64,000 nt of DNA. Origin: Phanerodontia chrysosporium. Taxonomy: Eukaryota; Basidiomycota; Agaricomycetes; Polyporales; Phanerochaetaceae. Each line of letters starts with the position of its first letter. Within the stretch, counting starts at the first letter, position 1. Location of the stretch: assembly GCA_001910725.1 (NCBI GenBank), contig MJGA01000006.1, positions 248,001 through 312,000 of the forward strand. The letters run 5' to 3'. The notes beneath the pieces are model-generated. The model worked only from the letters and a program-made list of their open reading frames with translations, was not told the DNA's origin and searched no databases. Below are positions 43,040-51,271 of the stretch, piece after piece. The translations under genes were made by a program, and so were the position numbers.

Positions 43040-44133
43040 ATGGACCGTTGCCCTGTTGAGCTGTGGGCTAGGATCGCGAGCCTTGCCTGCACAGATGGAG
43101 GACCCACGGGCCGCTCGCTTTCCCTTGTCTCACGTGCAATGCATCGCATCATCGAGCCCTTTCGCTACCATTCGGTTTCGCTCATAGGAAACGAAAGGCT
43201 GTTCTCCTTCGCGGAACGACTGGCAGCACTGGACAAGCCTCCCGACGTCCGTCATCTTTCCATCGCCAATCTCAAAAAGGACTGCTACTCTATTGAGGAC
43301 ATGTGGGCCGATGATTTTACGGACGAAGTGTGGGAAGAATGGGAGGAACAAGAGCAGAAGAGCGTCGTGAAGATCGACAACGCGCTTCAGAAGGTGGTAG
43401 CATCGACCGCACAGACGTTTCACACTTTGAGTATACACGGCTGGGCCTTCGATCGTGCCCTCAAGGATCTCACATTCCCTCGGCTCTGCGACCTCGTACT
43501 ACCTGGCGTACCCTCTGATGGTGCACCAGATGCCCATAAGCGATTCCCTTCGCTCCGTCGTCTTCATGCCATGTCGGCAGGCGATGCATCTCGTGACATC
43601 TTGCTTCGGGTAACAAACGTCGCCCCTCACATCACCCACCTCAGGCTGTCCAACGTCTCCCAAGACCTGCATTTGCCCTTATTCCTTCGTGTCCTACTTG
43701 ACGTACCACCTCGGCAGGGCGTTCTAGGTGTCTCGCGCGTCATGGGCATGAACGACGCCTACTTACCGGACTCTCAAGAGGCTAAGGATGCGCTTGCTAT
43801 AGCTTTACGGCTGTCTACCCTGGAATACATTTGCGTGCAGCTTGTGATGCACGACTCATCGGCGATTGCGGAACGGGCATGATGGTCGATGCCATTATGA
43901 CTAGTGGACTTTGTAGCATCCGGGATGCTGCCGAGCGGGGAGAAGCTGTCGGACAATTCACCTTGGTGTCCCGAAAGCTCTACACCTTCGAAGACGCTCA
44001 CAAGGACTGGCTAGACCTGGTGGAAGGCGGAGACGGCCCCTGGTATGGAGCTAGCCGGAGCCCAAGTGGATGCAGACCGGCCTTTGTCCGCGAGCGATGG
44101 CCCAAAGAAGATAGCAAATATTTCTCGCAATGA
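43040..44133 (+). CDS. F-box-like protein, intact tandem paralog
   Basis: ATG at 43040. The N-terminus MDRCPVELWARIASLACTDG followed by GRSLSLVSRAMHRIIEPFRY resembles the F-box helical module that docks target-recognition proteins on Skp1-cullin ligases. The rest (NVAPHITHLRLSNVSQDLHL, LRVLLDVPP, FEDAHKDWLDLVEGG) looks like a degenerate leucine-rich region found in large Agaricomycete F-box families. It is intronless. The frame breaks once at the G run 43875-43877, after which IMTSGLCSIRDAAERGEAVG continues to the stop at 44133. The neighbour at 44974 is a close paralog that has been split by a mobile element. Confidence 0.72.
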
Positions 44134-44973: not shown

Positions 44974-45447
44974 ATGGAACAATGTCCTGTGGAATTATGG
45001 GTCAAGATCACGGCCTATGCATGCACGGACGGCGGATACACCGGACGTTCGCTTTCGCTTGTGTCGCGTACGATGCATAGTATCGTCAAGCCCGTCCGCT
45101 ACAACTCAGTTGCGCTCATCGGGAACCGGAAGCTGCTTGCTTTCTCAGAGCAGCTGGCCACGATGCGTGCCGCGTCGTTGGTCCGTCACCTCTTCATCGC
45201 AGATATCGACCCCTTCACCAACAGCTGCGCCTTCGACGACTTGGAGGGCGATATGTATGATGACGAGAGATGGGAAGAGGTGTACAGGAGGAAAGAAGAC
45301 CGTGTCAGGCAGCTCAATTGGGCGCTGCACAAAGTCCTAACCTCTTCTGCTCCGTATCTCTATACGTTGAGCGTCCACGGCTGGAGTTTCGACCCCACGC
45401 TCGACCTACCCGTATTCCCGCATCTCATAGTCTCCGTTGCAGAGTAG
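44974..45447 (+). pseudogene. F-box-like gene 2, 5' half (split by mobile element)
   Basis: Begins MEQCPVELWVKITAYACTDG and runs parallel to the gene at 43040 through TLSVHGWSFDPTLDLPVFPH. Homology stops at about 45430 and the frame ends at 45447. The matching C-terminal half resumes at about 51272 beyond the element, so this is the front part of an insertionally disrupted gene. A truncated 158-residue product containing only the F-box module could still be made. Confidence 0.8.
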
Positions 45448-45485
45448 CCAGCCTTCAACCGGCAAGCGAGGATCGTCTGTCTGAC

Positions 45486-45521
45486 GTCTGCTTTCATTAG
45501 GCCCCCCCTTATCGACTGGTC
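45486..45521 (+). repeat. Left terminal inverted repeat of the helicase/DUF6589 element
   Basis: GTCTGCTTTC, 12 variable bases, then CTTATCGACTGGTC. It pairs without gaps with the reverse complement of 51176-51211: 24 of 24 bases match in the two outer blocks, with fewer matches in the middle 12. Exact ends and target-site duplication were not resolved. Confidence 0.65.
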
Positions 45522-45726
45522 TCCCCATCAAATTTGCTGCCGAGTTGCCGCTCACGTGAATGTGCAAGCAAGACCACACAACGCGCTCATTTTGCTGTTT
45601 GACGCCCACTGCACCGGAATCGTCGTCGCACGTCGTCGCGCCTGTCCCGTCTGCTCACCACCATGTTCCATCTCAAGTAACGCGGCTTGCGCTCCGCAAC
45701 CTGTACCTTACGACCCTCCTTAATAC

Positions 45727-48076
45727 ATGGCTCATTCACCCTCGAGACTGGTACCGACTCATGAGTCTGACTGGTTCAAGTCACCACACTTCGATTGGAC
45801 GACCGAGCCCGGGCTGCAATGCTTGCGGCAAATCTTGGAACGCAAGCTACCATACGCACCGGGCCAGTGGCAGATTCAAGATACTGCCTGGTTGCTTGCT
45901 GGAGACGACGTGCTGTGTGTCTCTGCAACTGGAGATGGCAAGTCCGCACTCTTCTACATGTACTCCCTCGTGCGCGATGACACCATTACGGTCGTGCTCT
46001 CACCGACCAATGCTCTCGAATTGGACATGGTACGTGCGCCTATATATTGTCAGTGGTCCAACAGCAACTCACCATGTTTCGAAGGTGGAAAATCTCCGCA
46101 AGCTCGGGATCTCCGCATTGGCCATCAATGCAGACACCCTGGCGGCTGCCGCAGTCGATGGCAGAGACCTATGGGCTGAGGCAAGGTCCTGCAGGTCTCA
46201 GATTGTCTTCTTCTCCCCTGAGACCATCGGCACCCCCCGTTTCCGCGAGTTCATCGAAGACAGAGAGGTTCGCCGGCGTCTCGGCCTCTTCGCAGTGGAT
46301 GAGTGCCACCTGGTTGACGAATGGGGCGCTGACTTTCGCAAGGCCTACGGACGAATCAAGGACGTCCGCCCCTGGCTCCCTGCGCACACCGCATTCCTTG
46401 CCCTCACTGCCACACTCGAGCCCGGCCGCCAAACGACGTCTGTCAAGGAGGCGCTCGGCCTTCGGCATGGACGCCTTCACTTCGATAAGCGCGACTGCGA
46501 ACGGCACAATGTCGACATCGTCCTGCGCATCATACAATACACGTCTTCGACGCACGAGTTCCGCGATCTGGACTGGCTCATTCCCACCTCATTGGCGCGC
46601 CCATCGGAGGTCCCGAAGACGCTCCTCTACTGTGAATCAATTGAGCTCGGGCATCGCGTGGCGATGTACCTTCGATCCCTCCTCCCGCAGTCGTCGAAGC
46701 CCTGTAGAAACCGTGTCATCCGGCACATGCACTCCTTGATTTGCGCGGAATGCAAGAAGGAGGGTCTTGGATCTTTATACCAAGACGAGGAGGCACGCGA
46801 GACAGCTATACATGTCACGACAGACGTCTTAGGCGTTGGAATGAACATGCAGGACTATGACCGCATCATCTGTTTTACGACGCCATCCTCCCTCGCTGCT
46901 CTGATTCAGCGTATTGGACGTGCCGCGCGTGCTCGGGAGCGGCACGGAACGGGGATCGTCTACCTGAAGAAGTCAGACCTGTATGGCGCTGTCGACTTCT
47001 TGGAGCAAGTCAAGTGTGGCTCCCAGGCTTTGCAGGACAGTCGGCTCCTAACTGCGGGCCCCTCTGACCTTGTGCGGGCTCCTCCGATCGCGAGTCTGAA
47101 GCCTCTGCCTAAACAGAAGGCACCCGACGCAACAACGTCTGGTATGGCGGGGAGGTCTAAAGCGCCATCGAAGACGTGCCCGTCGCTTCGGCTCGTCATT
47201 GCCGCGCACGTACAAGGTGTCTGCATTTCCCGTCAGATCAATGCCATCTACGAGAACCCTGGAACAGGTGGTGATTGCGGCCGCTGTAGCTCATGTCGTG
47301 CGTCTCCCAACCCCGACCCACGCCCTATCACCGCACCTGCTCCCGCAGCGACCATGCCTGCATCCCAGCGAACAAGCTCGTCGAGCACTGTGCCCCGTTT
47401 CTTCCAGCTCAATGTGAAGGATGCGGAAGCGGTTGCGCAAGAGCTTGAGAAAGCAGCCATGCGCATACTCATCTCACACCCCCCATGCGCCGACGCCATC
47501 TGCATCGGACACTTAAGCTTCCTCCCGCGCAAGTTCATCGACCGTATCACGACAGACTTCATGTTGGTGACCTCGGAGGCGATCTTGCGGCAACGGATGG
47601 ACGGCTGGCGGTACGATTGGTCGGAGTATGGTGAAGACCTGTGGAGCAACGTCTGCACGATCTACGAGCAGACGCGCAAGATGCTCGAGTCCCGCCATGA
47701 AGCCGCCTTGGAGAAGCAGCGCGAGACGGCTGCACAGAAGCGTGCTGAGAAGGCTCAGGCCGCAGAGGCGGCGGAAGAGAAGGCAGTTCACGAGGAGCTT
47801 GAACGGGTCGGGCTCGGCAAGGTCAGACGAGTTATATTGAAGATCGCTGAGCCCCACATTGTCTCAGAAGCGGCTATCGAGTCGAGCTCAGCACGCAAAG
47901 AGAACATACCGACATCACCCATGTCTCCGAGACCGAAGGCTGATGCGAACGATCTCGACAGCATGCCGCGAGCTCCCTTGACCCCTCGCAAGAGGCGTAA
48001 CGAGGAACAAGCGGAAATGTCTCCGTCGAGACGTGTACGACGATCAGAATGCTATGGTATGAGTTCTTGCCACTGA
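45727..48076 (+). CDS. RecQ-like DExH-box helicase of the mobile element
   Basis: Two exons, 45727-46029 and 46085-48076, joined by a 55-nt intron (gtacgt to gaag), give about 764 residues. Superfamily 2 motifs: Q-like IQDTAWLL, Walker A SATGDGKSALF (about residues 67-76), VVLSPTNALELDM, DECH box LFAVDECHLVDEWG (about 173-176), FLALTATLEPG, motif V HVTTDVLGVGMNMQDYD (about 344-360) and motif VI QRIGRAAR (about 375-382). A CGRCSSC cluster near residue 530 may bind zinc. The C-terminal third is a predicted coiled coil (EKQRETAAQKRAEKAQAAEA) with a basic tail. No HRDC or WRN-type exonuclease is seen. In the element it would probably unwind DNA during transposition or replication of the element. 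The start at 45727 is chosen because Walker A lies downstream in the same frame. Confidence 0.85.
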
Positions 48077-48161
48077 GTCTCGACGTTCTTCTCATCATCG
48101 CTGTTTTGGCAGAATAGGATAGGGTAGCAGCACGAGTACAGCCAAAATATAACCTCATGCA

Positions 48162-51042
48162 TTAATCTTCACCGCCTGAAAGCTCTGCAACGTCGTCAGG
48201 GGTCACTAGAACTCCGTCTGCCCAAATACATGGTAATATTTCATGATCTCCTGTCCCCTCCCTGTCCTCCGTATTGTCTTGCCTGTTTTCAGCGTCTGCG
48301 CCACTTCCCATCTCAAAATCTGCGTCCTCTTCATCAAATCCTGTGCGCTGAATGAAGTCCTGGATCCGTGGCGTGCTGGTAAACATCACATCACCCTTGG
48401 TAAAGTCGTCCTGTGCATGCTTATCTGACTGCCGCCCCGGCACATAGCGATGCAGATTATGTTCACGCATTGCACGTGCAATGGCACTGAGCGCGATGAC
48501 CTTCTTTCTCCGCCGATGAGCCCCTGACTTTTTGCATAATCCGGTCGAGTCCCGCATCCACTCCTTCACTTGAAGGAAGTGCCGGATATTGTATGCAATG
48601 ACGTTCTGAAAGTATGTTGATCCAAACTCCTTCTTCTTCTGGTCTGACCTCGTCTTCAGTTCCTTGATATTATGTTCCATCATGAGGTCCATTGGGAACC
48701 AGCAACCCTCGAACCCAGAAGGGTTGCAGAGCCAATTATTCATGATCGCTACCTTGAGACTGTCCCAGTACTCGAACTCGAAGTTGCATGCTAACTCTAG
48801 CAACTCGTTGGTGTACTTGGACTTTCCCGAGCCGCAAAATGTGAAGGTCCAGATCTACAACGATGTCAGTTCTTTCATATTGAGCATAACACACCCAACA
48901 TACCGCCATAATATTCATTGCACGTCCTATGTCACCGTCACTGACAGCGCTTTGGAACTCGTAATGAAGCATGCTATCTCGCATGCGGAGAATAGTATTT
49001 GCAAGGATATGGTCAGCGGCGGGTGCAGAGTATTTGGATGCCGCGGCTGCTGTGGACTCAGTCTTTGCGAGAGGAAAGAATCCAGTGTTGTCTCCTAGAT
49101 GCTGTGCACGTAGGTACCCTTGTTGCGATAGATACTTTGTTACAATGCTTTCTGCAGTGTTGATCAGCTCGTCTTCGGTTCCTGCCATGGGATGAGACGC
49201 AAAATATTCATCCAGATCGTCAGCGTCCAGAACCGCCCTAATGATAGTGCATCCAGTGAGCAACCGTGATGATAATCAAATAGTAATTGCTCTACTCACC
49301 GCCAGGAGTCCAGGATGTCCGCGCGAAGTGTGTCCACGACTAGAGCTTGTGCGGGATAGAAGTCTGGACGTTTGACATTCTTGACCTTCCGACCAAGCAA
49401 CTCATTCATAAACGCGAACGTCGAGGGGTCTGTATTGTGTCCGGGACCCCAGTGAGTGTTGAGCACACGTTCCAAGTCCGCCCAACCCATGTGCCAGAGC
49501 TGTATCAACGGAAGAACCCAGGCAAGACGTCTGTAGCGGTGCGGACACTCCGCCAGAAACCGCTTCAACGTTCTAATCTTCTCGACTGTTGCTTGGTCAC
49601 CACCGATGATTGTCAAGAACCTCGATGCCTCCTCCTCTGACATTCCCAGCTGGCGTAGCATCAAGTCGTCAATGACCTTCTGGTTTCCACCGCTGGTCCC
49701 TTCATCATGATTGGAGGTAGCCAATGGAATTACAACTGACTTGCGGCCAGGGGACATGCGGTGCATAGCGAGTGTGGTGCGCAACCGCTCCGTAAGCGAG
49801 GCCTTGATCGGAGCGAGACTCTCAACTTCTTGAAGAAGAAAGCTAACGACATGGACGGCCATAGTTTGGTAGAGCTCCGTCCACTTGATCCGACGATGTA
49901 GCACGTCTACCGTGAGCTTTGCGCGACCGTTCGTAGCACGTACATTTTCTAAGCGTTCAGCATCAAACGATGTATTGAAATCGCAGTCCTGGAGCTGTAC
50001 AAGCATAGCAGCAGTCCCACTATCCATACAGTCCTTCTGACCAAGCTCGGGGTCCCATTGGCGAAGCATCCGGTTGAGGTTGTCATAGATGAGGAGGAAG
50101 GCATGTTGGAGGGCGAGGTGACGAAGGGAGAGCTGCGTCGATGTGGACAGATCGCGAAGCAGGTCCAGGGTGGTCGAATACGCGACGCTGAGGCCCATAC
50201 GCCCGAGAATGGCGTATATTTCGTGTGACGCGCCGTTTCCGAACAGCCAGACACCGACAAGCTTCTGAAAGCCTGTGAACTGCTGATTCCTGGCGTTCAA
50301 CAGCATGAGCAGTGTCGTGAATATGATCTGGTGAAGATATTAGCGTTCAACCCAACGCACCCGAGCAGAGACATACCACATTGGGATCACGACGGTTATG
50401 TCCCGTCCCGGCGGCCGTAGGTTGTGGTGCCTTCTGTAGTGCATGTTGGGCGGACTGTCCGAGACGGTCGCGTTTCGGGATACCCACGGACGAGAGGATA
50501 GCGCAGAGCGTCGGAGCCTTGGCTTGCGCTGAGCCCATAACTGACGCTAGCGAGAAGTCCTTGAGGCCGTCCCAGGTGATGTTGTCAGAAAGACGAAGCC
50601 CACCGTGCACAGATGCAAGTAGGGAGGCTTCCTCCTCGATCATCTCGCATACTAACTCGAGAGCCCATTGACGGAGCCTCCATCGTGCCATGCGACGCTC
50701 GTCCGGACGCCTCTTGGGCTCGCCTCTGACCGGCTTGGGATGCGAATCCTTGCTCCGGTACATGAGATCGACGACCTGGTCTGCATGAGTCTTGGTGAGT
50801 CCTCCGAGGAACTTCGAGACCATCTGGCTGTGGGTTGAGGTCCTCGGTTTGTCACCGACCTTCGCCTGAGGTATGGTGAAGGCCTCTACCAAAAACTCGC
50901 CGAAGGATATCTTGAGCTTTGCAATCTCCTGGAAGACGGAGTCGAGTCTTCCGGGTGTGGCTGCGCTTGCGCTTGCGCTAGCCCCAGAGCGCACGCCGGA
51001 GTCCCAGACAAACGAGTGTGGCTTATCGAGACGTCCTTGCAT
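48162..51042 (-). CDS. DUF6589 protein, candidate DDE-type transposase
   Basis: Four exons with clean GT-AG borders give about 906 residues from the ATG at 51042 (MQGRLDKPHSFVWDSGVR). Exon 1 ends DPNV; exon 2 starts IIFTTLLMLLNARNQQF; exon 3 starts AVLDADDLDEYFASHP; exon 4 starts IWTFTFCGSGKSKYTNEL. DUF6589 landmarks are FLLIYDNLNRM, TIIGGDQATVEKIR, RRLAWVLPLIQLWHM, NNWLCNPSGFEGCWFPMDL, MMEHNIKELK and YFQNVIAYNIRHFL. Asp about 304 (YDN), Asp about 466 (GDQ) and Glu about 736 (MMEHN) are spaced like the acidic triad of RNase H-fold transposases; this is inference. A basic patch GAHRRRKK and an acidic C-terminus follow. No BED or other zinc finger is obvious. Its convergent position with the helicase and location inside the inverted repeats make it the likely transposase. 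Confidence 0.8.
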
Positions 51043-51175
51043 TAGAACGAGGATGTGGAATACGATGATACAAGCAGACGAGTCGACGCGACGCGGCTCA
51101 GCGGTGAAGCCACGTGGGATTTCCCGTTTAGGACCACAGGGGCTGACCTCTTCCAGGAATTACTTCCTAATCGGG

Positions 51176-51211
51176 GACCAGTCGATAAGCAGGGCGCGTC
51201 AGAAAGCAGAC
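51176..51211 (-). repeat. Right terminal inverted repeat of the element
   Basis: GACCAGTCGATAAG, 12 bases, GAAAGCAGAC: the reverse complement of the left repeat at 45486-45521 with identical spacing. Flanking 51212-51271 is not recognisably F-box sequence. Confidence 0.65.
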
Positions 51212-51271
51212 TAGCATCTCACCGATCTCACGTTACTTGCTGCGCCTCAAACATGGGCTGGGGAAGCGCAT

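What the first reader, a model, noticed from the sequence alone, without database searches (positions are those of the whole stretch)
45486..51211. Possible undescribed two-gene transposon: RecQ-like helicase plus DUF6589 between inverted repeats
Seen: a 5.7-kb block with gap-free 36-bp inverted repeats contains exactly two genes, convergent, intact, with stops about 85 bp apart, and it splits a gene whose intact paralog lies next door. Known: DUF6589 proteins and RecQ-like proteins are abundant and poorly explained in Agaricomycetes; helicase-bearing Academ (AcademH) transposons have been reported in fungi and animals. Inference: this is an autonomous DNA transposon whose transposase is the DUF6589 protein and whose helicase assists it. 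It may be an AcademH member or a separate group.
Basis: partly seen in the sequence, partly recalled or inferred. Interest (0 to 1): 0.88.

Follow-up and report, generated by a model that had tools for sequence, protein, structure and literature searches.

The report
Helicase-carrying fungal DNA transposon with DUF6589
A complete, apparently recently inserted jumping gene in a mushroom-type fungus carries a likely transposase (from a protein family so far labelled 'unknown function') and a RecQ-like helicase; it is most likely a member of the known AcademH group, and its exact ends and leftover scars make its mechanism testable.

The parts
45420..45427 (.). target-site duplication, left copy GCATCTCA
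45428..51213 (.). whole mobile element, 5,786 bp, TAGTCT...AGACTA
   Evidence: left end also fixed by the second copy on C65; both ends by duplication and restored target frame
45428..45485 (+). 58-bp outer left-end unit; also found alone at other sites with their own duplications
45727..46029 (+). helicase gene, exon 1
46085..48076 (+). helicase gene, exon 2 with stop; RecQ-like (motif GDGKS is in exon 1; DECH, TAT and QRIGRAAR here)
48162..48854 (-). DUF6589 transposase, exon 4 (last conserved E in MEHN)
48904..49237 (-). DUF6589 transposase, exon 3
49300..50327 (-). DUF6589 transposase, exon 2 (conserved D in YDN and in GGDQ)
50377..51042 (-). DUF6589 transposase, exon 1 (no Pfam match)
51173..51213 (-). 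right terminus, read inward TAGTCTGCTTTCTGACG...; no other match in the genome
51214..51221 (.). target-site duplication, right copy GCATCTCA

Best explanation
A complete, apparently recently inserted, autonomous-looking DNA transposon of the AcademH kind. Step 1 (inferred): the DUF6589 protein, a predicted RNase H-fold DDE transposase, binds the ends, which begin TAGTCT, and cuts the element out. Step 2 (shown by the duplications): insertion into staggered cuts, 8 bp apart here and 9 bp in the five other two-ended copies found. Step 3 (inferred): the RecQ-like helicase unwinds end or gap DNA during excision or repair. The element landed in an F-box-like gene and split it (shown). The role of each protein rests on fold, conservation and linkage, not on an assay.
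Confidence: 0.8

Rival explanations
1. Same kind of autonomous transposon, but DUF6589/RecQ elements form a superfamily separate from Academ that acquired a helicase independently.
For: No held paper links DUF6589 or PF20231 to Academ. The window's duplication is 8 bp. The readings of exons 1, 2 and 4 matched no other Pfam transposase family at E up to 1.
Against: A helicase with DEAD/Helicase_C domains, 9-bp duplications in the relatives and presence in Basidiomycota are what is printed for AcademH.
Confidence: 0.14
2. A Kolobok relative: KolobokH also encodes a RecQ helicase and has been found only in fungi.
For: RecQ helicase plus transposase in a fungus; a red-algal Kolobok even has its RecQ helicase on the complementary strand (passages of PMC9587614).
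Against: [quoted passage not shown] Kolobok duplications are TTAA (recalled), here 8-9 bp of varied sequence; the C/DxxH signature printed for Kolobok is not generally kept, at best 22 of 62 rows.
Confidence: 0.03
3. Two host genes, or a helicase-driven rolling-circle element, with a chance inverted repeat.
For: RecQ genes also lie near some telomeres of a mushroom (PMC10817607, passage).
Against: Duplication, restored target frame, second partial copy, recently moved relatives.
Confidence: 0.02

Closest known systems
AcademH (Kojima 2020, Mob DNA 11:15; paper not held, features from passages of PMC10045372 and PMC10799480)
   Same: DNA transposon encoding a helicase with DEAD/Helicase_C domains, long duplications (9-10 bp), low copy number, Basidiomycota
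   Different: 8-bp duplication at the window site and two related sites; nested left ends (whether AcademH has them is unknown to me); transposase homology not testable here
AcademX
   Same: Same superfamily, if the AcademH assignment holds
   Different: 3 or 4 bp duplications and a nuclease instead of a helicase; that the nuclease is XPG-like is recalled
KolobokH
   Same: RecQ helicase with a DDD/E transposase, fungi only
   Different: Duplication length and sequence (TTAA recalled), gene arrangement, no generally kept C/DxxH
KolobokP
   Same: Composite-like ends whose end units also occur alone (solo LTDRs; abstract and passages of PMC9587614)
   Different: LTDRs are about 450 or 660 bp, at both ends, with their own inverted repeats; here the unit is 58-67 bp, on one end, without them
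hAT (Hermes)
   Different: 7% identity; no helicase in hAT (recalled)

Membership tests
AcademH | Transposase homologous to Academ transposases | not testable with these tools
   No Academ sequence or profile available; papers not held
AcademH | Encodes a helicase (DEAD/Helicase_C) | tested here: met
   PF00271 E 5e-10 over cut-off; PF00270 24.4 bits, just under its cut-off of 26; TIGR00614 RecQ family E 2e-20 but far under its cut-off
AcademH | Target-site duplication of 9 or 10 bp | tested here: inconclusive
   Window copy 8 bp; 9 bp at C59, C113, C1, C2 and C57:143023
AcademH | DDD/E transposase (RNase H fold) | tested here: met
   By prediction only: model of P0049, aligner ranking, D/D/E conservation; Foldseek not significant
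AcademH | Terminal motif of the lineage | not testable with these tools
   Published motif not available; here TAGTCT
KolobokH | TTAA duplication (recalled) | tested here: not met
   8-9 bp of varied sequence
[quoted passage not shown]
   Separate gene on the opposite strand
KolobokH | C/DxxH between second D and E | tested here: inconclusive
   At best 22 of 62 rows
Helitron / rolling circle | No target-site duplication (recalled) | tested here: not met
   Exact 8-bp duplication

The most novel reading that the evidence does not exclude
The element has two nested left ends. The transposase can cut at the inner one and at the right end, so that the gene-bearing core leaves while the 58-67 bp outer unit stays between the two target duplications as a scar. 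Solo units at C73 and C91 end exactly at the base before the window's inner end, and C58 does so in a second subfamily. Either this is asymmetric excision with a 58-67 bp scar, or the unit is a one-ended mini-element moved by the same enzyme; either would be a new feature for this kind of transposon as far as I know.
Probability: 0.4. Interest if true: 0.68.

Novelty: new member of a known kind. Interest (0 to 1): 0.52.

Why it matters
It gives DUF6589 (PF20231), an 'unknown function' label found on many proteins of mushroom-forming fungi, a concrete role as the likely DDE transposase of helicase-bearing elements, with exact ends, an intact two-gene copy and very recently moved relatives. That makes the question of what the helicase does in transposition directly testable. 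The solo left ends point to an unusual excision outcome.

Tried and rejected
Foldseek against PDB gave no E below 0.001; only the second-look aligner ranked transposases on top. Sequence and profile searches of PDB with the transposase gave nothing convincing. No full pair of ends with a duplication was found at C94, C113:1330k, C124, C135, C73, C64, C57:587k or C2:943k (the last three only for TAGT...ACTA pairs in the pieces held); C113:1329059 and C73:14485 keep one end. C69, C60 and C87 were only listed for TAGTCT, C83 was not fetched. C124 and C135 are 99.3% identical over all that was fetched, so show no boundary.

Solo units: searches gave 13 places. Four have the core (window, C65, C113:1329059, C73:14408). 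C80:463830, whose unit is split (other part C80:465001), was left out, as was C35:14845, which shares only the 13-mer. Of the remaining 8, C64:97974, C80:1718957 and C72 show no duplication at 40-110 bp; C80:1718957 has a 10-bp repeat at 271 bp. Random internal deletion explains the left-only solos poorly, since the right end has no other match; recombination between end repeats was rejected because the unit is not at the right end. A solo search with 3.3 kb of the C113 element, its left end included, found none.

Papers: passages seen in PMC10799480, PMC10045372, PMC8290104 (also its introduction), PMC12210899, PMC10294476, PMC4455052, PMC9587614 (with parts of its abstract), PMC9970103, PMC10817607; all others only as search listings.

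Full report
What is there. The window lies in a 39.0-Mb genome of 145 contigs, a basidiomycete to judge by its protein relatives; the closest transposase homologue, 70% identical, is from Phanerochaete sordida. Two genes face each other: a RecQ-like helicase of 764 aa on the + strand and a DUF6589 protein of 906 aa on the - strand, stops 85 bp apart. PF20231 matches the exon-2 reading at E 1e-54 and the exon-4 reading at 3e-22.

Ends. A partial copy on contig C65 starts exactly at window 45428 (91% over 480 bp). It is split at 45903-45907, a 5-bp overlap of the two matched pieces, by about 7.8 kb. The stretch 45428-51213 begins TAGTCTCC, ends GCAGACTA and is flanked by GCATCTCA on both sides. 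Zero of 5,000 shuffles gave such a combination, here and at each of the three other loci with an observed pair, C59, C113 and C1. Cutting out the element and one duplication copy joins the flanks into one uninterrupted 418-codon stretch (394 from the first likely ATG).

Relatives in the same genome. The DUF6589 exon-2 protein found 16 places, the Pfam model 43 pieces that I group into 17 loci, window included, and the helicase 15 places. C69 pieces of the two calls, 17 kb apart, are counted as one locus. Fourteen of the 17 have a helicase match within 11 kb, 11 within 3 kb; C60 is among the 14 by its outlying C-terminal piece. Eleven pairs are convergent and 3 (C124, C135, C2:943k) divergent. 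C73, C69 and C83 have none, and C113:156514 is a helicase alone. C113/C1 and C124/C135 are near-identical pairs and not independent. For the 13 pairs other than the window, bit scores of the two proteins against the window rank alike (Spearman 0.94), as expected if the genes move and diverge together. C113:1202302-1208371 and C1:2050545-2056612 are 99.93% identical over 6,073 bp, without matching flanks and with separate 9-bp duplications: a very recent movement. C59:294323-301148 and C2 (413706-420226, left end diverged to TGATCT) also have 9 bp. C57:143023 is a 1,247-bp derivative with both ends and 9 bp. Of 8 assembled relative loci, 4 gave a pair of ends with a duplication; C94, C113:1330k, C124 and C135 did not.

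Relatives elsewhere. The named DUF6589 homologues are Agaricomycetes, by my knowledge of the names; many hits are unnamed. Of 18 close helicase homologues (P0111-P0128, E 5e-99 or better), 10 have the same longest-contig length as a DUF6589 hit. In Hermanssonia centrifuga two such pairs have consecutive gene numbers (EW026_g7882/g7883; PHLCEN_2v3495/3496); in P. sordida the tags are 086150 and 086170. That they share a contig is inferred from equal lengths and tags, not read from DNA. The other 8 of 18 showed no such partner; the searches scored only the best candidates.

The helicase. It matches RecQ-family models (TIGR00614 E 2e-20, under the curated cut-off) and, among solved structures, WRN, RECQ5, RecQ and BLM. 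Motifs GDGKS, DECH, TAT and QRIGRAAR are present. It may unwind DNA at the ends or in the repair gap; this is inference.

Nested left ends and solo units. The 13-mer TAGTCTCCGTTGC occurs 11 times in the genome and 0 times read backwards. In the window the first 58 bp (45428-45485) precede an inner end GTCTGCTTTC, which pairs with the right end. At C113:1329059 and C73:14485 a different 67-bp unit precedes GTCTGCC in the same way. Units also occur where the match stops before the core. Of 8 such places, 5 have an exact 8-9 bp duplication around 55-67 bp (C73 GCGCCTGC, C91 GGTATTAG, C60 TGCGATTGA, C62 GCCACGTCC, C58 CGTTTGACC); with flanks swapped between places 0 of 56 did. C73, C91 and C58 end exactly at the base before the inner end (at C58 a repeated TA leaves two bases ambiguous; C91 has its first base changed); C60 and C62 end elsewhere. 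The right end has no other match. The simplest reading is that each place once held a full insertion and lost the core. Whether the transposase cut the core out, or the units are tiny elements moved on their own, is open. Solo end units are known from KolobokP, where they are much longer and at both ends.

Comparison with the known. AcademH elements encode a helicase, give 9 or 10 bp duplications (passage of PMC10045372) and occur in Basidiomycota (passage of PMC10799480). What could be tested fits, except that the three sites with the exact 58-bp unit and a duplication (window, C73, C91) have 8 bp; the diverged units at C60 and C62 have 9. Homology to Academ transposases could not be tested. 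KolobokH, the other RecQ-bearing lineage that I saw in print, fails on duplication (TTAA, recalled) and gene order. No held paper contains DUF6589, and the one PF20231 hit is an optics paper in the listing.

Verdict. A real, autonomous-looking, apparently recently inserted transposon; a new member of a known kind with probability about 0.8. The role proposed for DUF6589 and the solo left ends are the parts of most interest.

Noticed in passing
window:43040-44133: The neighbouring F-box-like paralog changes reading frame near 43,830-43,880: an intron or a frameshift, so it may not be intact.
   Followed up: partly
L005, L006 (G000:C65:5776-14135): The partial second copy is split by about 7.8 kb with a 5-bp overlap at the joint, as an LTR retrotransposon would leave (insert not identified); its match ends after window position 46036.
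   Followed up: partly
L071 (G000:C57:143023) and L072 (G000:C13:493332): Two relatives of the C59 element at different sites, 98.5% identical over their first 658 bp; the C57 one is 1,247 bp long with duplication TGGACTAGG, the other's right end was not seen.
   Followed up: partly
C59 right end; C113:1202302 both ends: Strong subterminal hairpins, e.g. a perfect 14-bp stem near the C59 right end; the window's ends fold only weakly.
   Followed up: no
G000:C124:166861-173316 and G000:C135:614456-620911: 99.3% identical over the whole fetched stretch: uncollapsed alleles or a segmental duplication.
   Followed up: no
P0093: A Rhizoctonia solani DUF6589 protein carries the public name 'Transmembrane protein 245 [Mus musculus]', an evident misannotation.
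   Followed up: no
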